Shown here: positions 3,526-60,653 of the stretch, piece by piece
Layout of the letters: every line of letters starts with the position of its first letter
Numbering within the stretch: position 1 is the first letter of the stretch
From: Hemileia vastatrix
Lineage: Eukaryota > Basidiomycota > Pucciniomycetes > Pucciniales > Zaghouaniaceae
Length of the DNA stretch: 64,000 nucleotides
Assembly (NCBI GenBank): GCA_030280995.1
Contig: JASXTE010000012.1
Location: 7,346,001 to 7,410,000 of the forward strand
Reading direction: 5' to 3'
Made by a program: the position numbers and the translations under genes
Notes under the pieces: generated by a model
What the model saw: the letters and a program-made list of their open reading frames with translations, nothing else
Database searches by the model: none
What the model was told of the DNA's origin: nothing

Positions 3526-3657
3526 AAATTTGGCAATCTAGACCCCTACTTAAGTAAAAAGAAGGGGGGGGTATTGCCAATTTTTTTTTGACATTAAAAT
3601 TTTGGCAATCCCTACCCCCTATTATAGTAAAATTTAGGGGAGGGTATTGCCAAAATT
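3526..3657. repeat. Twin G/C-armed hairpins (element D)
   Basis: Two adjacent imperfect palindromes, 3526-3584 and 3596-3657. Each has an arm reading TTTGGCAATC-CTACCCC, an AT-rich loop and the return arm GGGG-GGGTATTGCCAA. They lie between the 3' end of the plus-strand Tet-like gene and the 3' end of the minus-strand Myb-like gene. The same pair occupies the equivalent place in element A (7373-7525). They could be bidirectional terminators, small nested MITEs, or part of transposition or silencing. The function is not known. Confidence 0.7.
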
Positions 3658-3904
3658 ATAAATTAGAAAAAAAAATTATGAATTTATGTATCTTGTGGAT
3701 TTAATGAACCCTTATAAAATGCCTATTATGGAAAATTATTAAATTTACCATGCATATCATGCATACTCAAAATCTATAAAGTATTAAAGTTTCAAATCAT
3801 TTGCCAAAAAACAAAAAGTTAATATCATTTACGTTTCAACTTGCCAAAATCTTGAATTTTTTAAATGAGTACCTCATCTAGTATGGACCAAAGTACTTTA
3901 AGAT

Positions 3905-4463
3905 GCAATGATGGGTTCATCCACCTCAGGATCAGAATGTAAGGCAGGTTTTTCAAGTTCAGGAGAGTTAAGTAAAGAATCTAAAGGTAAATCTTCTTCA
4001 TCAGTATTTGGATCACATGGTTTAGGTGCTTGCGGTTTGTACAAGGGATTGACATTGTGTCTTTGTTTAAAGAGTTAATCCATTTGATGATAAAGAGGAC
4101 ACATAGCTTTGAGTTCTTCAGATATAGAAGTTATACCTTGTTTCTTGTCATCTTCTGTCACTCCAAATCCAGTTGAAGAAGAAGCCATCTTTGCCTTCTT
4201 ATATTTACCTTGATAATTTTTAAATTTTTCTCTCATTTGCTTTATTGAAAATCCATCTTACCTTTATTTTTGGACTTTAATTTGAGTGCCATTTGATTAT
4301 AACCACTTAATTTGGAGGCAGGTGGAGGACCAACTTGGGTAGCCTTTTTACAAACAAAGCACACTTCAAAATTTTATTTAATTTTTATCCAGTTAATTAA
4401 CATCTGAAGATCATCTGGCTTTAATTGAGTAAATTTTTGTGAAGTAGCTTTTCAACAAGGCAT
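3905..4463 (-). pseudogene. Myb/SANT-like Harbinger accessory protein (element D)
   Basis: The minus frame starts at an ATG (4463-4461) reading MPC followed by a TGA. It then gives the block LMLINWIKIK / PPASKLSGYNQMAL typical of the Myb/SANT-like protein encoded beside Harbinger transposases, then (after frame changes) GKYKKAKMASSSTGFGVT and LKAMCPLYHQMD. The gene is homologous to copies at 5692-7047 and 58686-60043. Such proteins bind the transposon ends and escort the transposase. It runs convergently to the Tet-like gene. At least three stops or frameshifts make it a pseudogene. This copy is the most diverged of the three. Confidence 0.7.
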
Positions 4464-4976
4464 GGTGAAAAAGAACTATAAAAAAAATATTTTTCAGTGA
4501 AAAAATAAATGTTTGATGAAGAATTAAAAAAACCCAAACAAGTTTATGTATGGACTTAAAATGATAGCCTTAAATAAAGATAAGAAGTTTAGAGAATAGA
4601 AAATTGAACTGGAAGTGTTGATAAACTTACTGGGGTAAAATGGATAAAAATTAGTATCGGAGAAGTGGGAGGGAAAAGATGTGATATGTGATGTACAGGG
4701 AGGATCTATGTATAGGTGGGTATAGGTGGGCTGATCTGCGGTTTGAAAAATTTGCAAAAAGTGGTAGGGAAAATATGTGATATTTGGTGGATTGGTGGGT
4801 ATATTTATAGGTGGGCTGACCTGTGGTTTGAAAAATTTACACTAAAGTGAAACATATTCGACCCCAATTTTGAGACAACAGATACCAAATCAGCCATCTT
4901 TCATGGCATGTTTGTATGGCGTTTTTCAGATGAAATCTGCTAGGCGTATTTGGTAATGTTTGAGACCCACTAATGA
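4464..4976. other. Spacer with imperfect direct repeat
   Basis: No gene recognised. Around 4660-4845 a segment containing GGTGGGCTGA and GGTTTGAAAAATTT occurs twice in direct orientation, roughly 100 bp apart. The Myb-side terminus of element D should lie here by analogy with elements A and C (about 306 bp upstream of the Myb start), but no terminus like theirs is visible. Confidence 0.4.
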
Positions 4977-5118
4977 CTTATCTGGAGAGATGAGATGAGA
5001 AAATAAGTGAAACCAAATTATTTGAGGGATGTTTTAGGAGAGGAGGAAACAGATATGAGGAATGAATGAAAAAAATAAATAGTGAAAAATTATTTGATTG
5101 CTAAAAATATGTGATTTC
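4977..5118 (-). mobile_element. Harbinger B, fragment left of the copia insertion
   Basis: Collinear with 9181-9318 of Harbinger A (shared blocks AGATGAGATGA, GAAACCAAATT and AATATGTGATTTC). At ATTTC (5114-5118) it is interrupted by the copia LTR, and the homology resumes at 24942-24946 (CTTTC) with ATGTTGAGCTGGTG. This is the target of the copia insertion. Confidence 0.75.
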
Positions 5119-5381
5119 TATATAACAGCAAGCCTTTTAGGAGGATTCAGAAGTCCAAGTAAGCAATAGCACAACAAGAGATCAAGGATTCAGATCTAGT
5201 CACCTGCAGTGGAAAAAAGTTAACTGATATGATTTACAAATAGGACAAAAGACAACACAAGTATACTATGGTAAATGAAAAATAAAGTAAAGTACCTTTT
5301 AGGAGGATTCAGAAGTCCAAGTAATAAATAGCACAACAAGAGCTCAAGGATTCAGATCTAGTCACCTAAAAAATAAGAGGA
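5119..5381 (-). repeat. Copia 3' LTR, part 1 (split by Harbinger A)
   Basis: Matches 24345-24609 of the 5' LTR almost base for base, including an internal two-copy duplication of about 162 bp (CCTTTTAGGAGGATTCAG at 5133, repeated at 5295). The other half of this LTR is at 10165-10496. Confidence 0.88.
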
Positions 5382-5691
5382 GACTAGGGGTATTAATGTT
5401 GAACAATCCACAATTAAATTAATTGCTGATAGAAATCATTATACCCCAATTATCTCCCACAATAATTTTTGCTAATAATTGGGTTATTAGACCTTTTAAA
5501 TGTCAATGTTCACCTCTATCCGACATTTTTATCTTCAATTTTTCATAACCACATCTTGGACAGCTTTCTGGATATCCCAAGCTTCCTACCTTGCTGCACA
5601 CTCCCATCCTTTCTATTCATTCTATCTGCTCAGAACCACTTCCCATCTCATCTGTTTTTCTCTTTTCCTTTTCATCTTAAAATATCTCAGC

Positions 5692-7047
5692 ATTCCTTGT
5701 TGTCATAGACCTTCTCAAAGGCAGGCTTCCATCAGTTGTTCATCAAATCCCATTACTCCCTCTTTCCCCCACTCAGCTGAGAAATCAAAGATTTTTCAAC
5801 TAAAAAAAAATTATCATCTCATACTTATCAACTGGCTAAAAATAAAAACTAATTATGATTCTTGTTTTGGTACTAAGAATGCAACTAAATTAGGACAGCC
5901 CCTTGCATCAAAATTCATTGGCTATCTTCTAATGGCCAATTAATTAAGAAAAAAGACAAAGGGAAGGATTGATATTTTGGATAAACAGATGTCTGAAAGT
6001 TTCAAGCATTACTGAACCAAATACAAGAAGGCAAAGACACTTTCATTTTCTACTTGTTTTGGTATTACTGAAATTGATATAAGTAAGGGCATAAAATCCA
6101 TAGATGATAAACTTGAATCTCTATGTCAATACCTTAAAGAGATGGATGCTATTTTTGGAGAGCAAGCTGATTTTAATCCAGCAAACATGTTGGATGGTGA
6201 AGACTCTATCTCCAAATGTGATATTGAAGCAAATCTTTTTCCTTCTTCTTTTACTCAAGCCTTCCCTCATTAAACTTCCACAAATCAAGATATCTTTTCA
6301 ATAGATTCTTATGGCAATATAAATAAACCTGATCTAACTCAAGTATGTTTTTATTTCTTGTCTAGTTGTTTTATTTTTTTTATTTCTAAAAAGGCTAATG
6401 AATGAATCAAGGATCCTCAAACAAGTGAGTCTGATTCTAGCATAAATGATGTAGAGGAAAATGTTACCTCCAAAAAAAAGCAAAGAACATCAACTACTTT
6501 GAATTTCAAAAGTCAAAGAAATAAAAACAGAGATAGTTTTTCCCAAACCCCTTTTTCTTCCATTGATGATTTTCTGGAAAAAAGTGAATCTGGTAAGTGA
6601 TAGTATACCTCTTAATAATTAAGTGATTATTTTTTCCTTTAGTTAATATTCCTTTTCACTATAGGTAAATTTGAAGTTGCAAGAGATACTCTCAACTTTC
6701 AAAAGAAACAATACAAGCCCTCTTTACAAAGGGATGATAGGGCACAATACTTGGAGGAGAAGAAATTTGAGCTTTCTTTACAGAGGGATGAAAGGGTACA
6801 AGACTTGAAGGAGAAGAAATTTAAGCTTTCTTTAAAGAGGGATGAGAGGGCACATGAATTGGAGGAGAAGAAATTTGAGATAAAGAAAGAGGGGAAGGCT
6901 CTTGAGTAAAATTTCCTATTTGATCAAATGAGACTCAAGTATCAACTTGAGGATGGTTCAAAAAAGAAAGATTTCTTGAGAGAATGTGTTAAAGCTAATA
7001 AATCTATTGAGGAAATTGAATGCTTTATGAAAATGTTTGATAACTAG
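5692..7047 (+). pseudogene. Myb/SANT-like Harbinger accessory protein (element A)
   Basis: Homologue of the protein at 58686-60043. The codon aligned with the start Met of copies C and D is ATT here (5692-5694), so the start is lost. The conserved N-terminal block LILINWLKIKTNYDSCFG and PLASKFIGYLLMAN (to 5940) resembles a Myb/SANT-like DNA-binding domain. Then come KYKKAKTLSFST and an acidic-polar middle. Two introns are shared with copy C: GTATGT...AAAAAG (about 6343-6394) and GTAAGT...CTATAG (about 6594-6665). The C-terminus has three 18-residue charged repeats (6721-6882) that look like a coiled coil, then FDQMRLKYQLEDGSKKK and a stop at 7047. Stops near 5941, 6014 and 6272 inactivate it. 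Confidence 0.75.
6721..6882 (+). repeat. Three 54-bp in-frame repeats in the Myb-like gene (A)
   Basis: Units 6721-6774, 6775-6828 and 6829-6882 each encode an 18-residue segment of the type SLQRDERxxxLEEKKFEL. The same number and length of units occurs in copy C at 58852-59013, so the array predates the split of the copies. It is predicted to be an alpha-helical charged rod. Confidence 0.85.
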
Positions 7048-7372
7048 TTTTTTTATTTCATTTAGAAAGTTTTTTTGATAGAATGCATTAAAGCTAATAA
7101 TCAATCCTCAGCACACACTCCTCACTAAGATATGAAACATTTTGTAGAAACATTTTAGATTATTTGTTTGTTTGGTTAAATAAATTTTGTTTAATTTCTT
7201 TTTGGTGATAATTTCATATGTGCTGACTTTTTAATGGTCTTGATTCTAGATGATTTTTTTTTGCAAAAATTTGTAAAACCCATACATTTTTTCTTCTTTA
7301 GATTCAAATAATTAAATTTACTTTTCTAAATACAGCTAAGTCAACAAAACTATATATCTTTTTTAAAAAATT
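7048..7372. other. AT-rich spacer after the Myb-like gene (A)
   Basis: About 325 bp, AT-rich. It includes a partial echo of the preceding coding tail (AATGCATTAAAGCTAATAA near 7081). No gene seen. Confidence 0.4.
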
Positions 7373-7525
7373 TGAAATACCCTCCCCTGCATTTTATTGA
7401 AGCAAGGGGTGGGGTGGGTATCACCAAAATTTTTCCAAGTCATCAATTTCACTTATCAGATTTGAAACTTTGGCAATACCCTCCCCTGAATTTTATTGAA
7501 GTAAGGGGTTAGAATCACCAAAATT
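7373..7525. repeat. Twin G/C-armed hairpins (element A)
   Basis: Two imperfect palindromes, about 7373-7430 and 7468-7525. Both contain ACCCTCCCCTG, an ATTTTATTGAAG loop and a GGGG...ATCACCAAAA return arm. They lie between the Myb-like gene and the oppositely oriented Tet-like gene, as in element D (3526-3657). Confidence 0.7.
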
Positions 7526-7912
7526 TAATATAAATACATAAATTAATATATAAACAACTAATATATATCAATTTCCCTAGTTTTAAAGTAATGACAATTC
7601 TTCTAGCCAAAATGTGGATACATCTAGAAACAAATGATTGGGACTTTCCACAAGTGTAGGCTGAGGAACCTCATGAAAAAAATAAATGTTGTCATCATTA
7701 CCATTTATACAACACAGGATCATTTTCCCATTACTTTATTTTAGGAATTTGAAATATAAGAGTTATTTATAAATTTTTTTTGAAAAAATAAAAAATATTT
7801 GATGACTCTACTCATCCCCATACTTTTTTGATCTACATCAAGTTTCTATATATCTGTTAAATTTAACTTCTTTTTTTACCTTGTTTATTTTGTGGATTAA
7901 GTTTTGACTGAT
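7526..7912. other. AT-rich spacer before the Tet-like 3' end (A)
   Basis: No gene or repeat recognised between the hairpin pair and the 3' end of the minus-strand Tet-like fragment. Confidence 0.4.
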
Positions 7913-8227
7913 TTAAAAAAAACATTTAAAATGTGTGAACTCTTGACAAGATTCCAAGCCAGGTGGAGCTTTGTTCATTTGGTTATGATCCTGAGAAGAG
8001 TTCCAAATAGTTTCAATGATTCCAGTTCCAAATCCAAAATTGATTATACAGTTGTGATCCAGAAAGTATAACCCATGAACTTTTATTTTTGCTGGGGAAG
8101 GAATAGGTTCTCCTGTAATAGGATTAATATAAGAGAAAATCCCCAAAGTAAGATAATTGGCTTCATTCTTATAAGTATAAATCTTGTTATGATAACCAGA
8201 ATGTAATTCTTTCAAGAAATTGGCCAA
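7913..8227 (-). pseudogene. Tet/JBP-like oxygenase C-terminal half, HxD lost (element A)
   Basis: About 104 codons without a stop, homologous to the element D gene. Shared blocks are LGIFSYINPITGEPIP, KIKVHGLYFLDH, the FG-x-GTGIIETIW segment and NKAPPGLESCQEFTHF. The position that holds HxD in active Tet/JBP-like oxygenases reads YTY, and the distal His position reads Asn. The N-terminal exons seen in element D are not recognisable upstream, so this is a 5'-truncated copy. It runs convergently to the Myb-like gene at 5692-7047. The frame has stayed open in this half even though the iron site is gone. Confidence 0.6.
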
Positions 8228-8347
8228 GAAATAATTGAGTGATCCTAAGCTTTGGAAGATAAAATACTAGATAATCATTAGATAAGAGTTTCAGAAGCCT
8301 TATTCTCTAATTATGCAATATAAAAACTTGAAATAAATTATGTGATA

Positions 8348-8701
8348 TTTGGAAAAAAAGGCTCAACTATAAAGGTCAATATCTCAGCAACCAATGAACC
8401 AAATCAAAATCTGTTTATGGTAAATGAAGGATAAGCTTCATGAGAATCTTCAGTTAAAGGTAATGTGATTTAAATAAACATAGCCCTAATTTGTTACATA
8501 AAAACATGAAATAAAAAAATTAAATTTGGAAAAAAAGTCTCAACCTTAAAGGTCAATATCTCAGCAACCACTGAATCAAATTAAATCTGTTTTCAGGAAA
8601 AGAAAGTTAGCCCTCCAAAGAGTCTTCAGTTAAAAGGACATTAGATTTGAATAAATCTAACCCTAATTCCAAGTCATATTTTCAAAATTTTACAAAAACT
8701 T
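8348..8701. repeat. Direct duplication, period 177 bp (element A)
   Basis: Two head-to-tail copies starting at TTTGGAAAAAAAG (8348 and 8525), each with the block AAGGTCAATATCTCAGCAAC. Divergence is moderate. Function unknown. The sequence is non-coding in all frames I read. Confidence 0.7.
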
Positions 8702-9300
8702 GAAAAGTGGTAATGGAGATGAGAACAAGAGGAGTTTAATAAGTTCACAGTTATCAAGATAAGAGTTATACATATATTTAAGTATGAAATTTTCATAGAA
8801 GGAATAAGATATCATATAGGCATGGAAAAAAAGGAGATGAGACTCACCTTTATTGAAAAATAGGAAAAATAGAGTGAGAAAGATTGATGTTGTAATTTGG
8901 GAGAAATTGAATATTCATTAAGTGAAATGCATAAAGAATGTGCGATGTATGTGCTTTAATGACATGGAGCCAAAAAAAAGTGAAATAGGGGAAAGGAGGG
9001 ATGAAGAGTAGGATGATAGAGCTAAAAACAAAAGTAAAGAGGGAGAGAAAAAAAGGTTAATTTTACCATTGAAATTAAAAATAACCACTTACAAAAAAAA
9101 ATTCAGATACAAAAAATAAAAAAACAGAAAAAAAAATTATAATTAGCAATCAAAAAATCAAAAAAAGGATAAAATAACTTACCTGGACAGATGAGATGAA
9201 AAAATAAATGAAACCAAATTGTTTGAGGGATGATGGAGGAGAAGAGGAAAAGGGTATGAGGGATAAATGAAAAAAAAGAAACAGTGAAAAATTATGCAAT
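8702..9300. other. Purine-rich spacer (element A)
   Basis: A/G-rich on the plus strand. Near 9178 the minus strand has a splice-donor-like CAGGTAAGTTATT. No gene was recognised. Confidence 0.4.
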
Positions 9301-9368
9301 TGCAGAAAATATGTGATTTCATGTTGAGGTGGTGATTGAAAACAAATGAGATATCCAAAATATAAAAT

Positions 9369-9690
9369 TCAGTGTAAATTCAAAATAAAAATGAATATGC
9401 AAAATAAAAACACCAAACCAAGTGAATAAAAACAGAAACTGAACATTTGGAGAGTATGAAAAAAATTAAAAGGGTTGTGTTTCAAAATGTTGGAAGGTTG
9501 TTGGCATAATGACAGAGTGTATGCTGGTGGAAAGAATGTTTTGTGATGCAAGGGAGGGGAGAGCTGATGCAGGTCTGTGATCCTCTTCTTCTTAAAGATT
9601 ATTGAAAAGAAAGATAAGCTAAAGTGTCTTCCAAACCAGAGTCAGAGTCAGAGTCAGCAGCTAAAACTAAAGTGATAGCATTTGTAGCTG
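9369..9690 (-). pseudogene. Harbinger transposase remnant with core deletion (element A)
   Basis: Minus-strand sequence matches both ends of the transposase of element B: the 3' part (about 9369-9598, compare 25007-25228) and the 5' part (about 9605-9690, DSDSGLEDTLAY, compare 26225-26311). About 1 kb holding all catalytic residues is missing between them, with the junction near 9598-9605. The codon equivalent to the start ATG of copies B and C is also changed. Confidence 0.75.
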
Positions 9691-10164
9691 TGTGAAGTTT
9701 CTTCCTAGTAGAGAGGTGCTTCAATATTTTCAGTAGAAAAGGTTTTCCATAGAAGGTTTAGATGATGAGTTGTAAGTGGTAATTTTCCACTAAATGAGCA
9801 GATGGGGTGTGTAGATAGAAAAAAATTTTATGTACTCACCACTAAAATTAAGTATCATAGAGTGAAGAGACACATAAAGATGAGAAAAAATGTTATGTGT
9901 TTGCCACCAAAATTAAGTATCATAGAGTGATGAGATACATAAGGATGGTATCAGTAATTATATGGTGTTTGACTTGCTTAAAAATTAATCATGGATGTGA
10001 TGAGTTTGGGGTCAGGAATTAGGAATGGAAATTGGGGTATAAGAGGCAGGATAATGCATTATTGTGGATTCCTTATCCACTAGCCCTTGGGCTAGTCGAT
10101 TAGAATCTTCTGCAATTGATAATTTCTGATCCATAATTGCTGATCCCTCAATATTGATACCCCC
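9691..10164 (-). repeat. Transposase-side terminal region of Harbinger A
   Basis: Matches 26300-26796 of element B and, inverted, 54474-54905 of element C. Contains the palindromic-looking block ACTAGCCCTTGGGCTAGT near 10079-10096, conserved as CTAGCCCxGGGGCTAG in the other copies, and ends in the terminal repeat CATTGATACCCCC. It probably holds the transposase promoter and binding sites for the transposase or the Myb-like protein. Confidence 0.75.
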
Positions 10165-10496
10165 TATTATAAAAAAGATATTAGAAATGGAGGTGGATAA
10201 GAGGATGAGAAAGAACATTACCTGCAGCCAAAAACAATTAGCTGATGAAGGGAGACTGTACAATCTGTTCTTTTATATAGTTACTGATCTAGTTTCTGCT
10301 GCAGGTAAACATGTGAGGGGATCACAATTAATACTAAGCAGGTGTAAATACAAGTAAAAGAGAGGAGCTACACTGGTAGTAAATACACATATTTTTAATG
10401 AGATAGGATACTAGAAAAAAAAGATGGCTGATGTGATGCTGAAGTGTTATTCAAGAGATGGGAGATAAAGTATGGGTTGAGTCTTTTATTCTGACA
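10165..10496 (-). repeat. Copia 3' LTR, part 2
   Basis: Collinear with 24610-24941. Ends (plus strand) in ATTCTGACA, the complement of the LTR start TGTCAGAAT. Parts 1 and 2 total about 595 bp, against 597 bp in the 5' LTR. Confidence 0.88.
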
Positions 10497-10509
10497 CCCT
10501 TCTGTCTTG

Positions 10510-15566: not shown

Positions 15567-15581
15567 AAAAATTTTTACTGA

Positions 15582-17309
15582 CTCCCAGATGAGGAAATTG
15601 TGTCTAAGTTAATTTCTTTGTTTACCAATGTAGACCTAATGTGGTATGAATCTGTTCTCCTGGATAGGAATAACTACTCATGGGAAGATTGGAAAAAATT
15701 GATTAAAGCACGATTTGGTGGCTCCAAGTTTAGGATGGCACAACAAAAGCAGAATGAGGAGACTAGATATAGCTCTTCTACTGATAAAACTATTAAGTTC
15801 TTAATAAAACTTGTAAAAATCTTGAGGGCTATGGACCCAAATATGGAGTTTGAGTTATGGAAGGACAGGATCCTTTATAAATTACCAATGTCTTTGAGAG
15901 TCTTGATAGTGGCTAGGACTGAGTTCTCCAGAGAACCTTCTTCCTTCATTAATACTTGTAATGAGATCCTTCTAAACAACAAGTATGATTCCAGAAGATT
16001 CATTCCTAGGACCCATTTGGAGAAATCCTCCACTTACCAACAGAAACCTCTGGAAAAGGTTGGTAAACCTTCTGCCCCTGTTTCACTTAAAAAGTATGCA
16101 ACAAACACTTGCTTCAAGTGCAACAACCCTTGGCAGAAAGGCCATTTCTGTGACAATAGGATAAATCTTGTTGAACAAACTGAGGAGCAGGCTGATTACA
16201 CAACAGCACTGGATGATACTTCAAGTGATTTTGCCAGCAATATTTCATATGAATCTCAACAAGAAATCTTGATGCTGGAAGAAGATATTCATTATTTAAA
16301 TACTATTGATATTGATAATAATGATATATCTACAGTTGAGGATGCTGAGATCATAAGGAATATTGAGGATAGCTCAATTGTTATTTCCCCTTTCAAAGAA
16401 CCAGTCTTGATCAATGGAACCAGAATTGAAGTTGTTCTGGATTCTGGAGCTGGAGGAAGTGTAGTATCTGAAAAAGCACTTGCTTCAGTGGATCAAGACT
16501 ATAAATCAAAACTGATGCCTATCATTTCTGAAAATTGGAGAGGTTATGTCTCTGTTTTGTCCCCCATTGGTAAATACAAAGCCACAGTGTTTTTTAAATA
16601 TAACCATGTTTTTGTAAGAGCTATTTGTGATTTTGTTGTCATGAAAAATGATAATTTAAGCAGTTGGTTTATCATAGGAAATGACATTTTAACCAAATAT
16701 GGCATAAAATTAGATCCTTCAAACCAATGCTTCACAATGGGGATGAATGGGAAGAGAAAATTTAAGATTTCCTCCCCCGAAAAATTTTTAAAACCAGAAT
16801 TGAACACATGTAATTCTGTGATTCAATATAAAGGAAGGTCTACAAAGGAAATGCATACTCTTATGTCTGAAATCGTCAATTCTTCTTTTGGAGAACAACT
16901 TTCTGGTGAGGATAAAGATTCCATCATTAAATTGATAAAATCTTTTCATATGGCCTTTGCTCATGGGTCACATGAACTAGGATTAGTTAAGAAAGAAATT
17001 AAAATTTCATTATCTTACCCAATTACTGACATACCACCTAGTTTAAAGAAGAAGCCTTACCCTGCTTCTCCCACAAAGAGAAAAGATATTGAGGATAATA
17101 TCTCTACCCTTTTGAAAATGAATATTATTGAAAAGGTAGTTGAAACACCTAAATATTTTGTTATCTCACCTGTCCTAATTTTTTATGAGAAAGACAAAGC
17201 CAGGTTATGTGGTGATTATAGAGCATTGAATACTTATACTGTTGATGATATCTACCTTTATCTAGAATTAGCTCTATACATGCTACCTTACAATGTGCTA
17301 AATATATAA
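15582..17309 (+). pseudogene. Gypsy 1 gag C-terminus, zinc knuckle, protease, RT start
   Basis: Same frame as the gag above, open from the TGA at 15579-15581 to TAA 17307-17309. It contains the capsid C-terminal block, a CCHC-like knuckle with C-x2-C-x7-H-x-C spacing (CFKCNNPWQKGHFC near 16110-16150), and an aspartic protease with VLDSGAGGSVVS (catalytic Asp in DSG, near 16435-16470) and IGNDIL. The RT N-terminus follows, with KKPYPASPTKRKDIED and DKARLCGDYRALN. The frame is lost near 17255. Gag, PR and RT in one frame is common in fungal gypsy elements. Confidence 0.88.
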
Positions 17310-17879
17310 GCTGCTTGGATGGTAACAAGGGATATCACCAGGTACCTGTTGAGAAGAATTCCCAGAATTTTCTGATGATTGCTACTCATATGGGTATTTA
17401 TAAGTATATTAGGATGATATTCGGCTTTAAAAATTCCCCTTCAGTTTTCAAAAAGTTATGGATAACACATTCCATCAGGTGATAATTGATGCATGGCTGA
17501 TGGTTTATATTGATGATATCATTATATTCTCAAAAAAATTTGGGGACCATCTCAACCACCTGTGTAAAGTGTTCCACAAAATGGATGAAATAAATATGAA
17601 CTTTGCTTTGAAGAAATGTAAATTTTGTTTTCATTCCTTAAAAGTGCTGGGTCATGTTGTTTCAGGGTTACAGATATGTGTTGACCAAAATAAAGTGGCA
17701 GTCATACAGCAGGTGAAGGCTCCTACCACGGTTAGAGAGCTCCAGAGTTTTTTGGGAATGTGTGGATACTATAGACAGTATATTAAAAATACCAAGTCAT
17801 AGCTTTACCCCTTACCCAACTGACTAGAAAGGATGTTGCTTTTTTCTGGAATAGTGAAAGACAGAGAGCTTTTGAAACT
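17310..17879 (+). pseudogene. Gypsy 1 RT palm with YIDD, frameshifted
   Basis: Continues RT in other frames: CLDGNKGYHQVPVEKNSQNF (about 17313-17372), then the frame from 17458 with the catalytic YIDDIIIFSKK near 17504-17536 and VLGHVVSGLQICVDQNK. It ends at a TAG (17800-17802) after GYYRQYIKN. Another frameshift follows before RNase H. Frame changes near 17255, 17455 and 17800 make it inactive although the YIDD box is intact. Confidence 0.88.
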
Positions 17880-24941: not shown

Positions 24942-26796
24942 CTTTCATGTTGAGCTGGTGAATGAAAACATATGAGACATCCAATAAAGAGATATTCACC
25001 ATAAATTCAAAGAAAAAATTGAACATCCAAAAAAAACACCAACCCAATTGAATAAAGCAGACAAGCTGAACATTTGGAGAGTATGAAAAAAAAATTAAAA
25101 GTGTTGTGTTTTAAAATGTTGGAGAGTGATTGGCATAATGACAGAGCATACTCCAGTGAAAAGAATGTTTTGTGATTTAAGGGAGGGGAGAGCTGGCACA
25201 GGTTTGGGATCCTCTTCTTCATAAAGATAATTCAACTCATCCTTTAAATCAGCTATGATATTGTGGAGTATAATACAAGTCATTATCCAATGATTTGTAG
25301 TTTGATTTTCATTTTTTTTTGAAATTGGATTCTGAGTTCCTGCAGACTAGAAAATCTTCCCTTTGGAATCCCAATAGCATTTTCAATTAGTACTCTTGAT
25401 TGTGCAACATTATAATTAAAAGATGTTTTTGGGTCATTTTCTAAAGTTACACCTCGTAAAGTAGGTATAATGTATTTTCCACTTGCATATGCTGAGTCTG
25501 AAAGAGGTACTGAGATTTGTCAAAGTATTGGTCAGAATTTTGAGAAATCTTCACTCTTTGGAACACAGAAGAGTCATGAAATGAGCCAGGGAATCCACTA
25601 TGAAAAGCAATAAACTTTTTATTGATATCACACACAAGTTGAACAGCAATAGAGTATCTAGAAAGAAGATAAAAAGTTAGTTCATGAAGAAAAATTTGAG
25701 ATCATTTTGAAGAAACTTTTTTTTGCATCAAAATAATTGCTGCCATCATGAGAAGGCTTTTGGCTCAATGGTATATTTGTACCATCAACAAAACCTACAC
25801 AGCCAGTGAAACCTTCAGCTTGCATTACTTGAGATGATTCTAGTCTCTGTTGTGGAGTAGGCAAAGCAAGTGTCTGAGACTTGAGAGAAAGAATAGAAAT
25901 AATGCAGTGCTTAGTGTATAATATGATGGTACCATATCCTATAGTAAAAAGATTATCTTAATGTCTTACAGTAGTACCATTTGCATTTGAACCAAAGCAA
26001 CATAGTGCGGCAGCAAGTTGAAAGGCAGGATTACACCTTTTGTTATGGGAATTATTATTGAAGATAGGTTGATTGGAGATGGGTTGAGAAAGTTTAAAAA
26101 AAGAATCTGGAGAAGTTCAAAAAAGTTGTGTGAATTTTAAATGAGGAATTTCAAGAATTGAGGCAAGATCATATTCGGGATCATGATTAAGATTTGGTGC
26201 CCTTGGGATGATGTAACACTTTTAGGAAAGAAAAGACATGTAAGCTAAAGTGTCTTTGAAACCAGAGCCAGAATCATATTCAGCAGTTAAAGTTAAAATG
26301 ATGGCATTCATAGCTGAGTGAAGTTGCTTCCTAGTAGAGAGGTTCTTAATTATTGTCAGTAGAAGGTTTAGTTGATGAGTGGGAAGAGGGAATTAACCAC
26401 CAAATGAGCAGGTGGGGTGTGCAGATAGAAAAAAAATGTTATGTGTTTGCTACCAAAATTAAGTAGCATAGAGTGAAGACACACATAAGGATGAGAAAAA
26501 TGCTATGTGTTCACCACCAAATTCAAGTAGCATATATTGAAAAGACACATAAGGATGGAATCTGCAATTATATTTCATGTGACTTGCTTAAAAATCAATA
26601 ATGGATGTGATGAGTTTGGGATCAGTAATTAAGAACAGAAATTGGGGAATAAGAGGTAGGATAATGCATCATTATGCAATCCTTATCTACTAGCCCCAGG
26701 GCTAGTGGATAAGAATCATCCACAATTAATAATATCTGGCCCCGGAAAAAAAAATTTCTGATCCTTAATTGCAGTTCTCTGAACATTGATACCCCC
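24942..26796 (-). mobile_element. Harbinger B, transposase half
   Basis: The sequence right of the copia insertion, collinear with element A (9319-10164) and with inverted element C. It ends in CATTGATACCCCC at 26796, followed by TATTA. The part left of the copia is at 4977-5118. The Myb-side end of this element was not found. Confidence 0.8.
25100..26311 (-). pseudogene. PIF/Harbinger DDE transposase (element B)
   Basis: The probable start is ATG 26311-26309 (MNAIILTLTAEYDSGSG), the same start as copy C (54910). The minus strand reads DLASILEIPHLKFTQL, CCFGSNANGTT, then ESSQVMQAEGFTGCVGFVDG with the first catalytic Asp (about 25795). A short gap ending near 25650 is probably an intron. Then come GFPGSFHDSSVF (second Asp, about 25585-25550), DSAYASGKYIIP and RVLIENAIGIPKGRF (acidic residue, about 25390-25350). 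Frameshifts near 25530 and 25440 and several stops inactivate it, but the three catalytic positions remain. Confidence 0.82.
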
Positions 26797-26801
26797 TATT
26801 A

Positions 26802-26999
26802 GGGGGTATCAAAGTTAGAAATCTTCTATTTCCAAATACCTCTTTTTTCCATCAAATAAACCATGATTATTTTTTTAAATATGCCATATTTCACCCCAAA
26901 AAAACCTTTTCACTGAGAACTAATGTCCAGTTTGTTGCTTTCTATTTGTGTTGTGAAATATCTTTTAAATAATTACAAATTTCTAACTTTGATACCCCC
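26802..26999. mobile_element. MITE of the Harbinger B/C terminal family (198 bp)
   Basis: A perfect 21-bp terminal inverted repeat, GGGGGTATCAAAGTTAGAAAT, at both ends. The 5-bp flank TATTA is duplicated (26797-26801 and 27000-27004). The interior is non-coding. The left TATTA is also the flank of Harbinger B, so the two elements share one target copy. The first bases of the repeat match the Harbinger termini, so it was probably mobilised by that transposase. Confidence 0.92.
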
Positions 27000-31137: not shown

Positions 31138-31318
31138 CTTGCCCACCCAAAAAAAAACAATAAAAAAAATGATAAGTTATACATTTTCTTTATTTATTTG
31201 TTATTTTTAAGGTATTCAGATTAATTCTGTAGCATTAAAGATTATTCTTTAAAGAAATAAAACATAATAAAATATTATTAGTACTGGTTTTTAACCCCTC
31301 ATCTGGTTGAACAGAAAT

Positions 31319-39359: not shown

Positions 39360-39364
39360 ATTTA

Positions 39365-49660: not shown

Positions 49661-49744
49661 TCCCATTCCTTAGTTCTTTTATTTTGATAGTATTTCATTT
49701 TGTTTTTACACTAAGTCATTTTTTTCAATTTTTGCCATATTCTG

Positions 49745-51393
49745 CAGCTGATACTATGTTATTCTTCCAGTAAGGTCTAATCTGAATCATGTTCTAAATG
49801 TCACATCTGTTCCTGTACCAGAAATCTCTCAAGTTTTTGTTTCTGATAATGAATATGCTGATAATCAATTTGAGTCAAACTCTGAATATGAAGAAGGAAA
49901 TGGTAGTAAGTCTTCCTTAGAAATTCTTAGGAGCTCTTATATTTTCAAACCCTCATCTTTGGGATTGATAAAATCAATCTGCAATACTTCTTCTTTGTCT
50001 CCAACTTCAGCCAACTCAAACTTAGTTGAAATAAGTTCCCATCAGTTTTTGGTATTTTCTTACCATTCTCCTTCCTTATCCTCCAAAATGCAAACACATA
50101 TCTCTATTCCTTGCACATGATTCACTTGTTTCCTCCAATTTTATGTTTATCTTATGAAGAATAACATTCCCTCCATCTCAAGAAGAATATAGGCTGCATT
50201 AACAAAAATAAACCTTTGGATTCTTACTGGAAAATTTTATTGGCACAACTAAAACTTTTTTTTAATTGACAGATTGACTCACAAATTTTAGAAGATTTCC
50301 AACAATCTTCTTATTCTGCTATCAGAGAAATTAAAAATGAATATTTGACTAATTTTCTTCAGGAGCAGTCATAGGATAGAAATATTCAATGGAATGTGCT
50401 AATCCCACATGGTGGTGCTTTGTCAGCAAGTCAAAAGACACAGCTCAATTCCAATGATATTTTTCAAGACTCTTTGAATATGGCTGAAATAACACCTTTG
50501 ACCTGAAAAATTGTTTTGTGACTTGTACAACTGGATCCATGATTGAAAGATTAAGTATATTTTTCTCTTTTAAATTTATTTGTTTTTTATTCTTGGGCAG
50601 CATATATTGGCTTATGAACATATTAAACCTAAATTAACATCAAAAAATAGTCTGATGCAGATTTTGTTCTGCAAACTTCAGCTGGGTTTCTTGCAGAGGT
50701 CCAGAATTTTAAAAAATTGACTTGATTATGAAGTATAACATTCCTTTCCCTGACATTTCTAAATTTCAGGACTTACCTATTTTTTTCAACCCCAAAAACC
50801 CAAATGAATATTTTTTACTCAATTGGAATCTTTCCAACACTTGGGCTAAGATTATTTTAAGTGTTTTATCTTATGTAATGTCTTACTTTCTCTATATTAA
50901 CATATATCTATTTACTGACCCAGAGGAAGAAAATACTTCCAAGGCCACTAATCTCTGCCCACCTAAAGGTCCTCAATTTTCATACAAACTTACTAAGAAA
51001 AATCATTTTTCAAGCAAAAATTACATCTCAGATTATGATTCAGCTGGGAGTGAAGCTTCAGGAAGTGTAAGTTCAACTCCTCACCATAGACACAAGCATA
51101 TGCAATTAAAAGAAAATAAATTTAAAAAAAAAGTAAATCTCAATGACATCAAGTTCATCATAGAAAATCAAGCAAACAATTGTGTTATATGTCAAGCTCA
51201 CCAAAAATGTCTTCTACTGACCTTCATCAATCTGAAGATAACTGAAAAATGTCTGATTATCTTTATTTTTGTAAATCAAACTTAAAGAAATAATTGATGA
51301 TAGTTTGAAGACTCTTGGAATTTCTCACTGGTCTTTTTTTGATGATGTGCCTACTAAAGACCTTCTAGAGGTAGGTATCCCAAAAGGTGTTTG
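49745..51393 (+). pseudogene. Accessory gene of element F with SAM-like C-terminus
   Basis: Plus-strand coding remnants in several frames. An acidic Ser-rich segment (VSDNEYADNQFESNSEYEEG, about 49835-49900) is followed by a stop-rich middle. The frame from 50722 is open to 51285 (MKYNIPFPDISKFQDLPIFF, then a polar region SDYDSAGSEASGSVSS). The C-terminal piece LKTLGISHWSFFDDVPTKDL with LLEVGIPKGV ends at 51391-51393 and has the shape of a SAM domain (LG...W..F....DLL.VGI). The family is not known to me. It may be a regulator encoded by this transposon family. SAM assignment is tentative. Confidence 0.4.
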
Positions 51394-53160: not shown

Positions 53161-53224
53161 AATAAAACTACCAATTAATATTTAAAAAAATAAAATAACT
53201 AAAATAACAAAATAAAAGAAGTGG

Positions 53225-54473: not shown

Positions 54474-54909
54474 GGGGGTATCAATTTTCAGGGATCCACA
54501 ATTAGGGATCAGGAATTTTTTTTCCCGCATCCAAGATTATTAATTGTGGAATATTCTTATCCACTAGCCCTGGGGCTAGTTAATAATGAATTGATGATAA
54601 TGCATTATCAAGCCTCTTATACCCCAATTTCCATTCCTAATTCCTGATCCCAAACTCATCTCATCCATGATTAATTTGTAAGAAAGTCACATGAAATACA
54701 ATTGCAGATTCCATCCTTAAGTCTTTATTCACTCTATGCTACTTAATATTGGTGGTGAACACAAATTTTTTTTTTTCTATCTACACTCCGCAACTGCTCA
54801 TTTGGTGGCAAATTCCCACTTCCCACTCATCACCTAAACCTTCTACCAAAAACCATTTCTCCCAACAATAATAAAGCACCTCTCTTCTAGGAAGCAACAT
54901 CACTCAGCT
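54474..54909 (+). promoter_or_regulatory. Transposase-side terminal and promoter region (C)
   Basis: About 435 bp conserved in elements A and B. It contains the partly palindromic CTAGCCCTGGGGCTAG near 54564-54579 and TTATACCCCAATTTCC. It lies directly upstream of the transposase ATG at 54910. Likely promoter and protein-binding region; no TATA box stands out. Confidence 0.5.
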
Positions 54910-56060
54910 ATGAATGCTATCACTTTAAATTTAGCCGCTGACTCTGATTCTCACTCTGGTTTGGAAGACACTTTAGCTTATATGTCTTTCCTTCCCAAAA
55001 AGCATTACATCATCCCAAGGGGGCCAAATCTTTATCATCATCCCAGATATGATCTTGCCTCAATTCTTGAAATTCCTCATTTAATCTTCACACAACTTCT
55101 TTGAACTTATACAGATTCTTTTTCAAACTTTCTCAACTCATCTCTGATCATCCTATCTTCCATAATAATTCCCTTAACAAACAGCGTAATCCTGCCTTTA
55201 AGCTTGCTGTTGCACTAGGTTGCTTTGGTTCAAATGGAAATGGTGCTGCTGTAAGAAATTTAGATAATCTCTATACAATAGGATATTGTACCATCATATT
55301 ATACACCAAGCGCTGTATGATTGCTATCCTTTCTCTCAATTCTCAAATGCTTTCTTGGCCAACTCAACAACAGTGACTTGAATCCTCTCAACTAATGCAA
55401 GATGAAGGTTTCCCTGGCTGTGTAGGTTTTGTTGTTGGTACAACTATACTTTTGAGCCAAAAGAGTGCTCATGATGGCAGCCATTATTTTGATTTCAAAA
55501 AAAGGTTTCTTCAAATGATCTCAGATTTCTCTTCATGAACTAACTTTTTATCTTCTTTCTAGTTACTCTATTGCCATTTGACTTGTGTGTGGTATCAATA
55601 AAAAGTTTATTTATTTTCATAGTTGCTACCCCAGCTCATGTCATTACTCTTCAATGTTCCAAAGAATAAATATTTCTCAAAATTCTGACCAATACTTTGA
55701 CAAATCTCAGTACCTTTTTGCAGAATCAGCATATGCAAGTGGAAAATACATTATACCTGCTTTCCAAGGTGCAACTTTAGGAAATTACCCAATACCATCT
55801 TTTAATTAACATCTTGCACAATCAAGAGTACAAATTGAACATGCAATTGGGATTTTAAAGGGAAGATTGTTTAGTCTCCGGGAACTCAGATTCAAATTTC
55901 AAAAAAAAATGGAAATCAAAACTTCAAATCATTGGATAATAACTTGCATTATACTCCATAATATCCTGGCTGATTTGAAGGATGAGTGGTATGATCTTTA
56001 TGAAGAAGAAGATCCTGAACCTGAACTAGCCCTCCCCCCTTGCTTCACAAAACTTAATTT
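54910..56060 (+). pseudogene. PIF/Harbinger transposase (element C), catalytic Asp residues lost
   Basis: Starts ATG 54910 (MNAITLNLAADSDSHSGLED), then DLASILEIPHLIFTQL, a frame change near 55100, and the frame to 55376 with LGCFGSNGNGAAV. Downstream blocks match copies B and D, but the first catalytic position reads GCVGFVVGTTI (Val for Asp) and the second SSCHYSSMF (Tyr for Asp). The acidic IEHAIGILKGR block remains (about 55835). An intron with TTCTTTCTAG acceptor ends near 55561. Stops at 55374 and 55807. The C-terminal helix block WIITCIILHNIL is intact. Confidence 0.85.
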
Positions 56061-56366
56061 CCATTGGAATGCACTCTATCATTATGCCAATCATACTCCA
56101 TCATTTCTCAGCACAACTCCTTTCAATTTTTTATTATATTTCACTCTTTTTTTATTTCACCCCTCATATCTTTTTCCTCCTCTGCTCTTGTTTACCTCAA
56201 TCTATATGTATTTAAGTTTCACATTCTGATAGAATTAAATTTATTTTTCTAATGATATAAATGCCTTTTGATAATAATAATAATAATAATTTTCAATTTC
56301 TAAACAACCATTATAATCCAATAATATTTGAAGAAAGCTACCATGTAAGTATTCTAACTTTTCTAT

Positions 56367-57440
56367 TTATTTAATTTTTATATAGTCAGACATTACAACA
56401 TCTGGTATCAGAATTTTTAATTTTTTAATAGATTTTGATAGTCTTTTGCTGATTTGAATTGAAGAACCTGGCCTTTTAGAGTTACCAAACTCTGTTAGTG
56501 GGGTGGTTTGATGATATAGTTTGTTAGCAGGCCAAATAACCACCCATAAACCATCACACTTCTCAAACTCCACCATATACTTGAGCTCTGGAAAGATAAA
56601 GTGGCCTCCATGGTTTCTAGGTGTGCCTTCCATCCAAGAATCTTCATCCAAAAGTCCATCGAAAGTTGTTAGCCACCAAACACCCAGGCTAATATCACTG
56701 ACATCCAAATCTTTGTGTGGGACATTGGAGAAGCCTCCAGAAGTCCAAGTTAAGTTACCTCCAAAAGAATTAACACCATTGTAGCAAGGAAGATCTAGTT
56801 CAGTCACCAGTCTCAGAAATCTATGATAGTACTTTGAAATAAGAAGCTTAAATAAAAAGGCTTAAAAAGAAAAGATGAATCCTAAAGCTTCTCAAATTTA
56901 TTCATCATCTATTTTTAAAATTATATAAAGACTTGGAGATTTAATAAGTATAATAAAGTTTAAAAATTAATAAATTTACTTACTGATGTCAAATATATGT
57001 TGAGTAGCAGCTCTTTCCCCAGCAGAATACATATTACCCTTGCCAACTCCTATTTTATGAGCAGAATTAGTCTTCATTTTATGCCTCAACATTCTTATGT
57101 ATTCAAAACATTTCCTGGAATCTTCTGACATCCCCAAGCTTTTCAATTCTTTAAGTTGAAGGGACTTTACAATCACTGGAAGAATTTCATGATTAGAAGG
57201 TTGAATCACAGAAGGTTTTGGTGAGACATGAGCTATGGGATAGGTCCCGGTGTTGTAAGAGTCAGAGAATGTAGGTATAGGGCCATGAGATGTAACACCC
57301 TCCTGAAATGGATAAGTTTGGTACCAAACCTCTTCATAATCAGCTCTCACCTCATTTATTCAGGCCTACCCCTCCCTTCTGAAATAAGAGCTTTTATTTG
57401 GATGTCTATTTCCTCTTCTTGTAATATTTAATCTGCTTTA
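56367..57440 (-). pseudogene. Tet/JBP-like 2OG-Fe(II) oxygenase with intact binding motifs (element C)
   Basis: The minus-strand exon 57350-about 56979 (ending ATQHIFDISK) and exon about 56819-56367 join across a GT-AG intron with matching phase. The second exon is the oxygenase domain: GGFSNVPHKDLDVSDISLG holds the HxD iron pair, GGHFIFPELKYMVEFEKCDG is the conserved beta-strand block, LYHQTTP gives the distal His, and RPGSSIQI gives the 2-oxoglutarate Arg 13 residues later. All residues needed for catalysis are visible. An upstream exon (EEEIDIQIKALISEG, about 57435-57375) is out of frame, so the gene as a whole is probably broken. Active family members oxidise 5-methylcytosine in DNA. Opposite strand to the transposase. 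Confidence 0.65.
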
Positions 57441-57788
57441 AATAAAAAAACCCAATAAAAAACCTAACAAACATCTCCCAAAAAAATTTTTTTTGGTGGG
57501 GGGGCTACAACTAATAAACCTCACTTGATTCCCCAAAATATGTTATTGTTGGTGGGAGGGGGCTACAACTAATAAAAACCACTTAAAACCCCATACAGAC
57601 CTGAAGGAAGCACATTTATTATAATTTAAATAGTAAAGAGCTTACATTATTAAACCTGAAAGTTCCAAAAATTGAGTTATATGAGAGCTTTAAGTTTAAA
57701 AGATAAATATTCTTCCCCAACAGTAAGGTGCTATTTATTTAATTGATAAAGTTGATTCCAGTCTTTTTCAGTGCTGCTATTAATTTAG

Positions 57789-58065
57789 AACCTGGATGGG
57801 AGAGAACCAAATTCACTTCTAGCTGCAGCAACTTTGGTAAGGTGAGTTTTTTTTTATTTTATTTTTTTATTGTTGCTTTGTTCTCTCCCAGCCAGGAAGA
57901 ACCTGTCTGGGCAAGAACCAAAGTTGCTGCTAGTTGCTGCAACTTCAATAAGGTGAGTTTTATTTATTTATTTTTTTGTTGATTTTTTCTCTCCCAGCCA
58001 GGAAGAACCTGGCTAGGAGAGAACCAAAGTTGTTGCTAGTTTCAGGGACTTTGGTAAGTTGAGAT
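57789..58065 (+). repeat. Tandem repeat with splice-site-like borders (period 106-111 bp)
   Basis: Two and a half units start at AACCTG (57789, 57900, 58006). Each has a non-T-rich block of about 60 bp ending AAGGTGAG (donor-like), then a T-rich stretch and TCTCTCCCAG (acceptor-like). It looks like a duplicated exon plus intron on the plus strand, between the Tet-like and Myb-like genes. Confidence 0.65.
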
Positions 58066-58685
58066 TCTTTTATTTTATTTCTTTATTTTTTTAATGTTTA
58101 AATTAATACAAAAATATTAAAATAAGTCAATGATATGGACTACTGTTTGGAAATACCTGAAATAGTCTATGAGACTAGATATATGATCTAATAGCCTAAA
58201 AAATTAAAATAAAAATGAAAATTATTTGAAGGAAAAATTAAAAAAATAAATAGATAATTAACTGATGAATAAAGAAATTACTATATTTCACCACATTAAG
58301 CATCTCTGTAAAAATAACTAAAAGGATGGCAAACAGTCATCTCTGTAGTCACAGTTTTATTTCTTAAAAGAATGTTGTATATATGTGTTGGGTGGTCACT
58401 TGAACAAAATTCTACTTATTGAGCTCTATTAAATAGGTGTAATTGTTTTAACAGAATCATTCATATTTAAATTTAATAAGGTATAAATTTAATGGAATTT
58501 TAAATCAGCACAAAATTAACATTTTCTAGGTAAAAATAAAGATATTTGTCAGATGAAGAGTACAAAAGTATGTACACATCAATTTGAAGTCTAACTAACA
58601 ACACAGAGTAAGGATCATACTAGTTAAATTTCATGTGCAAAAAATTATAAACAAGTGAAATGGGAAATAAAAAAAAAAGTAGAAA
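58066..58685. other. AT-rich spacer in Harbinger C
   Basis: About 620 bp. No gene, repeat or hairpin pair like that of elements A and D recognised. Confidence 0.4.
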
Positions 58686-60043
58686 TCAATCAAAAATTTT
58701 CATTAAGCATTCAATTTCCTTGACAGATTTATTAGCTTTAACATATTCTATCAAGAAAACTTTCTTTTTGGAACCATCTTCAAGTTGATACTTGAGTTTT
58801 CTTCTGATTAAATAGTAAATTGTACTCAAGAGTCTTCTCCTCTTTCTTTATCTCAAATTTCTTCTCCTCCAAGTCATGTGCCCTCTCATCCTAATGTAAA
58901 AAAAGCTCAAATTTCTTCTCCTCCAATTCTTGTACTCACCCATCCCTCTGTAAAGAAAGCTCAAATCTCTTCTCCTCCAAGTCTTGTGCCCTATTATCCC
59001 TGTGTAAAGAGAGATTGTATTGTTACTTTTGAAAGTTGAGAGTATCTCTTGCAAATTCAAATTTACCTAGAGTGAAAAGGACTATTAACAAAAGAAAAGA
59101 AAAGCTCACTTAATTATTAAGAGGTATGCTATCACTTACCAGATTCATGTTTCTCCTGAAAATCATCAATGGAAGAAAAAGGGATTTTGGGAAAAACTAT
59201 CTCTGATTTGTTTTTTTTTTTGACTATTGAAATTCAGAGTAGTTGATGGTCTTTGCTTTATTTTGGAGGTAACATTTTCATCCACATTATCAATGCTAGC
59301 TTCAGACTTGCTTGATTGTGGTTCCTGGGCTTGTTCATTTGCCTTTTTAGAAATAAAAAAATAAAACAACTGGACAAGAAATAAAAGCTCACTTGAGTGA
59401 AATCAGGTTGATTTATATTTCCATAAGGATCTATTGAAAAGATATCTAGATTTTTGGAAGTCAAATGAGGGGAGTCTTGAGTAGAAGAGGTAGGAAAACA
59501 ATTTCTTTCAACATAATGTTCAGAGATATGATCTTCTCCATCCAACATATTTGCAGGATTAAAATCAGCTCACTCTCCAAATATAGAATCCATCTCTTTA
59601 TAGTGAGGACATAAAGAATCAAGTTTATGGTCTATATAATTTACACCCTTAATGTTATCAAGGTCAGTAATACCAAAATCAGTGGAAGATGAAAGAGTCT
59701 TAGCCTTCTTGTATTTGGCTCAATAGTGCTTGAACCGTTCAGACATCTGTTTAGACAAAAGATAAATCCTTCCCTTTGTCTTGTTTCTTAATTCATTTGC
59801 CATTAGAAGATATCCATTGACTTTTGATGCAGGGGGCTTTCCTACTTTAGTTGCATTCTCAGTACCAAAACAAGAATCATAATTAGTTTTTATTTTTAGC
59901 CAGTTGATAAGTATGAGATGATCATCTTTTTTTAGTTTAATGGTCTTTGATTTCTCAGCTGAGCGGGGAAAAGAGGGAGTAGTGGGATTTGATGAAAAAC
60001 AGGGGGAAGCCTGTCTTTGAGAAGATCTATGACAACAAGGCAT
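58686..60043 (-). pseudogene. Myb/SANT-like Harbinger accessory protein (element C)
   Basis: Starts ATG 60043-60041 (MPCCHRSSQRQASPCFSS). The domain LILINWLKIKTNYDSCFG, KPPASKVNGYLLMANELR and LLSKQMSERFKHY resembles Myb/SANT-like or trihelix DNA-binding proteins paired with Harbinger transposases. One stop (TAG near 59727) lies before AKYKKAKTLSSST. An acidic middle part follows, then the two introns shared with copy A (for example GTGAGC...AAAAAG near 59390-59340), three 18-residue charged repeats (58852-59013) and the C-terminus ECLMKIFD with TGA 58688-58686. Expected to bind terminal repeats and import or position the transposase. Least damaged of the three copies. Confidence 0.8.
58852..59013 (-). 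repeat. Three 54-bp in-frame repeats in the Myb-like gene (C)
   Basis: Units 58852-58905, 58906-58959 and 58960-59013, the same array as 6721-6882 in element A. Confidence 0.85.
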
Positions 60044-60653
60044 GTTGAGATATTTGAAGATGAAAAGGAGAAGAAACAAACAGATGAGATGGGGATGGGT
60101 TCTGAACAGATAGAATGAATGGACTGGATGGGAGTGTGTAGCAAGGTAGGGAGGCTGGCACATCCAGAAAGTTGTCCAAAATGTGGTTATGAAAAATTGA
60201 TGATAAAAATGTCAGATAGAGGCAAAAATTGAAATGTAAAAGGTCTAATAACCCAATTATTAGCAAAAATAATTGCAGAAGATAATTGGGTTATAATGCT
60301 TTTTATCCAAAATTAATTTCATTGCTGATTGGTCAACATTGATACCCCCTAATAATATTAAAATTGCGCTTTGAAAGATCAATTTTCCATATTTAGCGCA
60401 ATTGATTTGGCTACTTAAATGTCTAAAAATAATACTTCTATAATTTTATGATTTTTTAGGCTAGAAAGGCTTATGTGTACTGGCCTTATGCTTCCTGCAT
60501 TTATCCCACAGGCATAGCTTCATTATGAAGAAAGTTAGTAATTTTACCCTAATTCATCCCACATTGTATGCCCCATATGTGTAAAAATGCTAAAATAAGC
60601 AAGAGGCACTTATTTAGTGTCCTAATTTCATTATTAGTGCATTTACCACATTA

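What the first reader, a model, noticed from the sequence alone, without database searches (positions are those of the whole stretch)
3526..60349. Harbinger-type transposons carrying Tet/JBP-like oxygenase genes beside transposase and Myb-like genes
Elements D (1-4463), A (5387-10164) and C (54474-60349) each contain, or contained, three genes: a DDE transposase, a Myb/SANT-like protein and a Tet/JBP-like oxygenase. The first two are the known PIF/Harbinger pair. TET/JBP genes are known in basidiomycetes as passengers of a different class (KDZ transposons). A Harbinger lineage with its own DNA-demethylase-like gene would be a self-protection device against methylation silencing. That the oxygenase lies inside the termini is directly visible for A and C. 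The functional reading is inference.
Basis: partly seen in the sequence, partly recalled or inferred. Interest (0 to 1): 0.88.

Follow-up and report, generated by a model that had tools for sequence, protein, structure and literature searches.

The report
Rust transposons with swappable TET genes
Jumping genes in what is most likely a rust fungus carry a gene resembling enzymes that remove methyl marks from DNA; that pairing is already published, but here closely related copies carry quite different versions of the gene, one of them pointing the other way.

Summary
A and C (and D, whose ends lie outside the window) are decayed Harbinger-type transposons with a DDE transposase, a third gene and a Tet-like 2OG-Fe(II) oxygenase (PF20515). 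In the window's own 748-Mb genome I sampled 20 of 150 scored oxygenase places: the transposase was found in 19 and the third gene in 20, always in one layout; in 9 of 20 both termini were recognised around all three genes. The class is published: TET+ Harbinger ('PHISTA') of Puccinia and Austropuccinia (PMC12730594). Not seen in the sections I read: closely related backbones carry different oxygenase modules. Transposase and third-gene trees agree with each other and conflict with the oxygenase tree. C carries a divergent, reversed module (26% identity), scored at 40 genomic places including its own; both further copies whose flanks I read share C's layout. Function is inferred: five young copies show CpG-specific C-to-T change, and the oxygenase shows past purifying selection. 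A and D have lost the HxD motif. Whether young copies without the gene are common was not measured.

The parts
54474..60349 (+). Element C: Harbinger-type transposon with divergent, reversed oxygenase module
   Evidence: GGGGGTATCAA at 54474 and TTGATACCCCC at 60339; TA both sides, flanks identical over 8 nt; same layout in L037 and L038
54901..56135 (+). Decayed DDE transposase of C
   Evidence: DDE_Tnp_4 sub-threshold on two pieces; frames
56984..57359 (-). First readable exon of the C oxygenase (start codon not located; no Pfam match)
56367..56860 (-). Second exon of the C oxygenase with HxD and distal His
   Evidence: PF20515 E 9.7e-21; splice reading
56136..58616 (.). Block of C that does not match L036 (the module that differs), with its own tandem array at 57787-58087
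   Evidence: blastn breakpoints; TRF
58680..60043 (-). Third gene of C, with stops
   Evidence: related genomic copies
5387..10164 (-). Element A, decayed, nested in another repeat
   Evidence: termini; empty site at 24345-24942
5692..7047 (+). Third gene of A, with stops
7916..8266 (-). Oxygenase remnant of A, HxD lost
   Evidence: PF20515 E 1.1e-5, just under the cut-off
9338..9757 (-). Transposase remnants of A
   Evidence: tblastn and ORF pieces
1..4463 (+). Element D, incomplete, no terminus in the window
   Evidence: same gene order as A and L024
14..1014 (+). Transposase of D, frame broken
   Evidence: DDE_Tnp_4 E 4.6e-19 on 424-774
2262..3203 (+). Oxygenase of D, broken, HxD lost
   Evidence: PF20515 E 1.4e-10 on 2747-3022
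3902..4463 (-). Third gene of D, broken
24943..26796 (-). Fragment B1: transposase end only, no oxygenase seen
26802..26999 (.). 198-nt element with A/C-type ends, no genes, TATTA on both sides

Best explanation
A, C and D are decayed members of a three-gene DNA transposon lineage of the Harbinger superfamily in a rust fungus, of the published TET+ PHISTA kind. The transposase and a probably Myb/SANT-like third protein are the presumed transposition pair; the Tet-like oxygenase is a stable resident between them. Shown: one fixed layout, oxygenase between the termini, long open frames in genomic copies, low dN/dS between families, and different oxygenase modules on closely related backbones. 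Inferred: the modules have been exchanged or replaced; the oxygenase oxidises 5-methylcytosine on the element's own DNA and so counters CpG methylation; and having some oxygenase is selected while which one is not.
For: PF20515 in all three window elements. In 20 of 150 scored places sampled at every fifth row, transposase on the same strand in 19 and third gene on the opposite strand in 20; both termini around the three genes in 9 of 20. Five F1 copies 95-99% identical over most aligned stretches, one stretch 88%. HxD and distal His invariant in 12 of 12 long-frame copies. dN/dS 0.06-0.11 in 12 F1-G1 pairs. Tree conflict with AU p 0.00085, 0.017, 0.0037 and 2e-5. CpG-type C-to-T: 31 at 151 CpG sites against 29 at 2,059 other C sites in five F1 copies. 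Rusts methylate CG and have DNMT1/DNMT5: P. graminis (PMC8444563, passages).
Against: No enzyme, methylation or expression data. CpG decay goes on in oxygenase-bearing copies, so any protection is incomplete. dN/dS compares sequences chosen for long open frames, dS is near saturation in F1-G1 pairs, and several close pairs are high (G2 0.42-0.81; L002-L024 1.37; winC-L037 0.61). Groups for the AU tests were named after looking at identities. Oxygenase-free copies were not counted.
Confidence: 0.7

Rival explanations
1. The oxygenase works on DNA in another way than demethylation, for example by leaving a lasting modified base, or acts in transposition itself.
For: The only PDB sequence match of C's second exon is CMD1, which adds a glyceryl group to 5mC, at a chance-level E 0.84. 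PMC12730594 section 3.4 says another activity cannot be excluded.
Against: CpG-type mutation shows that a 5mC-like mark is a main hazard for these copies; the characterised relatives named there oxidise 5mC.
Confidence: 0.25
2. The tree conflict is not module exchange: an ancestral element had two or more oxygenases that were lost differently, or backbone ends recombined around the oxygenase.
For: Both histories give the same trees; alpha- and beta-type modules share position and orientation. Tandem arrays beside the oxygenase, shared between families, could promote recombination.
Against: The two genes on either side of the oxygenase agree with each other; third-gene dS between L036 and L025 is 0.29 while oxygenase dS between L036 and G2 copy L016 is 2.6; C's module is reversed with different surrounding DNA. 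No element with two oxygenase types was seen in the 20 sampled stretches.
Confidence: 0.25
3. The oxygenase is a passenger without function for the element.
For: Window copies A and D have lost HxD; some close pairs have dN/dS near or above 0.6.
Against: dN/dS 0.06-0.11 between F1 and G1, comparable with the third gene between the same groups (0.10-0.32 where defined, one pair 0.08); fixed layout in the sample.
Confidence: 0.1
4. Chance insertion of a host gene or another transposon into single copies.
For: None found beyond the decay of the window copies.
Against: The same three genes in one layout in 19 of 20 sampled places, with the third gene in all 20.
Confidence: 0.02

Closest known systems
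TET+ PHISTA (Harbinger) families of Puccinia and Austropuccinia psidii (Kojima 2025, PMC12730594)
   Same: Harbinger-type transposase, TET-like gene and a third protein inside inverted termini; TA beside the ends; rust host; TCG-type hypermutation discussed for Puccinia
   Different: Here different oxygenase lineages sit on closely related backbones, one reversed; flanks often match over 5 nt; the third protein has weak Myb/SANT-like matches, which the paper denies for its families. I could not compare sequences with the paper's data.
Nuwa / canonical PIF-Harbinger (two-gene, Myb/SANT + transposase)
   Same: DDE_Tnp_4 transposase and a second gene with Myb/SANT-like matches
   Different: Extra oxygenase; no 3-nt target duplication seen
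KDZ (Kyakuja-Dileera-Zisupton) transposons with TET/JBP genes
   Same: Tet-like gene in a fungal DNA transposon
   Different: Transposase matches DDE_Tnp_4, DDE_Tnp_1 and Plant_tran, no KDZ model. C's flanks happen to match over 8 nt, the length given for Zisupton, but other ends do not.
Anti-silencing transposons: Vandal/MuDR regulators in plants, HarbingerS with SET genes (named in PMC12730594 introduction)
   Same: Idea of a transposon-borne tool against epigenetic silencing
   Different: Different proteins; function not shown here

Membership tests
PIF/Harbinger (PHIS) superfamily | DDE_Tnp_4-type transposase | tested here: met
   D 4.6e-19; intact L036 1.2e-24; C sub-threshold; A only by similarity to C
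PIF/Harbinger (PHIS) superfamily | Partner protein with Myb/SANT domain | tested here: inconclusive
   14 of 17 copies match PF13837 at E <= 1, best 8.3e-4; scores shown (17.1, 18.9 bits) are under the cut-off of 27; structure prediction failed; no PDB match
PIF/Harbinger (PHIS) superfamily | 3-nt target duplication | tested here: not met
   No exact 3-nt match among 14 end pairs; 2 nt in 12, 5 nt in 7
PHISTA (Kojima 2025) | TA target duplication | tested here: inconclusive
   TA on both sides in 12 of 14 end pairs, but 7 of 14 match over 5 nt, more than shuffled pairs (53 of 60, p 0.0023, register chosen afterwards); empty sites give 5 extra nt for A and 8 for C
PHISTA (Kojima 2025) | Oxygenase inside the termini | tested here: met
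   A and C, and 9 of 20 sampled genomic places
PHISTA (Kojima 2025) | Transposase groups with PHISTA in a tree | not tested
TET/JBP dioxygenases | Tet-like 2OG-Fe(II) oxygenase domain | tested here: met
   PF20515 over cut-off in C, D and intact copies, just under it in A; PF12851 not matched
TET/JBP dioxygenases | HxD...H iron ligands | tested here: met
   C, L037 and 12 of 12 chosen copies; not met in window A and D
TET/JBP dioxygenases | Oxidation of 5-methylcytosine | not testable with these tools
   No assay or methylation data
KDZ transposons | KDZ transposase | tested here: not met
   L036 transposase matches DDE_Tnp_4, DDE_Tnp_1 and Plant_tran only at E <= 10

The most novel reading that the evidence does not exclude
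The oxygenase is a plug-in module. On one Harbinger backbone family (third-gene identity about 69-95%) at least three oxygenase lineages have been installed, one of them reversed with its own spacer and tandem array, replacing everything between the end of the transposase and the 3' end of the third gene. This implies lasting selection for having some oxygenase, with turnover of which one, as in an arms race with host DNA methylation.
Probability: 0.6. Interest if true: 0.6.

Novelty: new variant of a known kind. Interest (0 to 1): 0.45.

Why it matters
It turns a published association into a natural experiment inside one genome: closely related transposon backbones with different, intact or dead oxygenases, so that their effect on methylation, mutation and spread can be compared directly. 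It also bears on the published statement that the third protein of these elements has no Myb/SANT domain.

Tried and rejected
Protein database searches with the C oxygenase (300 candidates, none at E <= 1e-5) and with a profile of C, A and D (2,690 candidates, none at E <= 0.01) found nothing. A control with a Gypsy polyprotein found 675 proteins, and most of the 120 listed bear Austropuccinia psidii names while the five best are unnamed or called hypothetical, best identity 57-60%. So the database holds rust proteins, the two nulls probably reflect the short-word filter and decayed queries, and the host is most likely a rust but is not named.

Structure prediction from window sequences failed for the oxygenase (mean pLDDT 34.9) and the third protein (48.1); no fold search was made. 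PDB sequence searches: only CMD1 at E 0.84 for C's second exon; nothing for an intact oxygenase or the third-gene profile. Plasmids, Rfam, tRNA and PHROGs gave nothing; NCBIfam gave only weak IS-type matches for D's transposase.

Not answered: a transposase-anchored census and a search for DNA methyltransferases. Two dN/dS gaps: the script stopped with an error before the transposase table was complete, and one third-gene set had undefined dS.

Target-site length stays open.
Full report
What is there. It is AT-rich (GC 0.30-0.35) and full of repeats: Gypsy-type polyproteins, one with a chromodomain, Copia-type pieces and Harbinger-like elements. A and C have inverted GGGGGTATCAA-type ends with TA on both sides; A's left end is degenerate. 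D has no end in the window.

Genes. PF20515 matches C, D and, one bit under the cut-off, A. C's oxygenase reads as 289 codons with one predicted 123-nt intron and keeps HxD and the distal His; its start was not located and its first exon matches no Pfam family. A and D lack HxD where relatives have it. C's transposase lacks two acidic residues that D, B1 and L036 have (that these are the catalytic ones is recalled motif knowledge). The third genes of A and C contain stops.

Own genome. The family search scored 150 of 10,849 first-look candidates, each of the 150 over the cut-off; the number of genuine copies is not known. I took every fifth row of the first 96 (20 places, 10 kb each). The transposase was found on the same strand as the oxygenase in 19 of 20 (not L032). 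The third gene was found on the opposite strand in 19 of 20 with the window query and in L027 too with an L036 query, so in 20. Nine of 20 have both termini recognised around the three genes: L024, L025, L026, L028, L029, L033, L034, L035 and L036, 6.3 to 8.6 kb. In the 8 hand-picked places the third gene was found in 8 of 8 and the transposase, in the shorter stretches, in 5. Five F1 copies are 95-99% identical over most aligned stretches. L036 has the window's own kind of ends, a 454-codon transposase frame and an oxygenase in two frames. So intact-looking copies exist, and the oxygenase is a standard part of the copies found through it.

Selection. In 12 F1-G1 pairs the oxygenase dN/dS is 0.06-0.11 (dS 1.15-2.4, near saturation). 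Within groups it is higher: G1 0.21-0.51, F1 0.45-0.55, G2 0.42-0.81, L002-L024 1.37 at dS 0.035, and C against L037 0.61. Sequences were chosen for long open frames, which lowers the ratio.

Module conflict. On the third-gene tree (28 rows) G1, G2, A and C form one side (100/99) against F1 and D; on the transposase tree (23 rows; three short rows left out) G1, G2, A, B1 and C do (100/100). On the oxygenase tree (28 rows; C has no row, being too different) G1, A and F1 form one side and G2 and D the other (100/99). AU tests reject the opposite groupings: oxygenase G1+G2+A p 0.00085, G2+A p 0.017; third G1+F1 p 0.0037; transposase G1+F1 p 2e-5. Cautions: groups were named after seeing identity tables; A fills 36% of the oxygenase and 26% of the transposase columns; the group A+G2+C has 92/96 on the third-gene tree. 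Identities: L036 against L025 is 82% transposase, 79% third, 53% oxygenase; L036 against F1 copy L029 is 59%, 55% and 73%. At DNA level the L036-L029 match runs through the oxygenase and a neighbouring tandem array (3671-5383, 78.5%).

Element C. It matches L036 only at its ends (C 1-1662 and 4144-5876); all between, from just after the transposase to just before the third gene's 3' end, is different. Its oxygenase is reversed and aligns with the others at 26% identity (profile comparison, probability 74%, E 2.8e-5). The 1.2-kb module was scored at 40 places (the window's included, the others at 85-89%) of 370 candidates. Both copies whose flanks I fetched, L037 and L038, have C's backbone and layout. 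L037 keeps an open HxD-bearing second exon; L038 is broken.

Methylation signature. In five F1 copies, C-to-T differences from the majority number 31 at 151 CpG sites and 29 at 2,059 other C sites; per 1000 sites and copy TCG is 61.5, the other CpG contexts 15-42, non-CpG 0-9. CpG observed/expected: L029 0.39, L036 0.34, L033 0.29, L025 0.15, D 0.11, C 0.06, A 0.03, two Gypsy regions 0.06. This fits 5mC deamination and the TCG pattern that Kojima's discussion cites for Puccinia. P. graminis has CG methylation and DNMT1/DNMT5 (PMC8444563, passages only).

Third protein. Kojima writes that the third proteins of TET+ Harbinger contain no Myb/SANT domain. Here 14 of 17 genomic copies match PF13837 at E <= 1 (best 8.3e-4), the only other family being matched by one member; the two scores shown are well under the cut-off. 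Suggestive, not settled.

Known and new. Of PMC12730594 I saw the abstract, introduction, methods, section 3.4, the first of two parts of the discussion, the figure legends and passages on Harbinger. It reports 15 TET+ Harbinger families with TA duplications in five Puccinia species and A. psidii, PU-type TET in seven transposon lineages, transfers between superfamilies, and PHISTA members in more than one TET cluster. I did not see there replacement of the module, or a reversed divergent TET, on one Harbinger backbone family; the supplements were not readable. My literature searches were made; only titles and abstract starts were seen for the other papers, except passages of PMC12210899 and PMC8444563.

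Mechanism. Shown: a three-gene unit in one layout, signs of past purifying selection, oxygenase histories that differ from the backbone, CpG-type decay. Inferred: exchange or replacement of the module, oxidation of 5mC, relief from silencing, arms-race turnover.

Noticed in passing
5119-5381 + 10165-10497; 24345-24942: A lies inside a repeat of about 600 nt whose second copy, without A, sits at the end of fragment B1; that repeat appears inserted in Harbinger transposase-side DNA (compare 4972-5118 with 9173-9320).
   Followed up: partly
26802-26999; L022 8357-8554: 198-nt gene-free elements with A/C-type ends and TATTA on both sides, probably non-autonomous relatives.
   Followed up: partly
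54473 and 60350; 30719-31140; 38941-39362: C is inserted in a repeat of which two copies without the insertion lie in the window; the joined flanks have 8 extra nt against them, so C's target duplication may be 8 nt.
   Followed up: partly
31319-35407 and 15600-18938: Two Gypsy-type elements, the first with a chromodomain at the end of its integrase part.
   Followed up: no
22108-23237: Copia-type remnants (SH3_retrovirus, weak gag_pre-integrs).
   Followed up: no
50722-51285: ORF with a sub-threshold match to PF20126 (TumE), probably spurious.
   Followed up: no
L036, L010, L029 and 9 others (alignment A3): Where C and CMD1 have Arg shortly after the distal His, the non-C oxygenases have His in the copies printed (FTHFGCSF); whether this affects 2-oxoglutarate binding is unknown.
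   Followed up: partly
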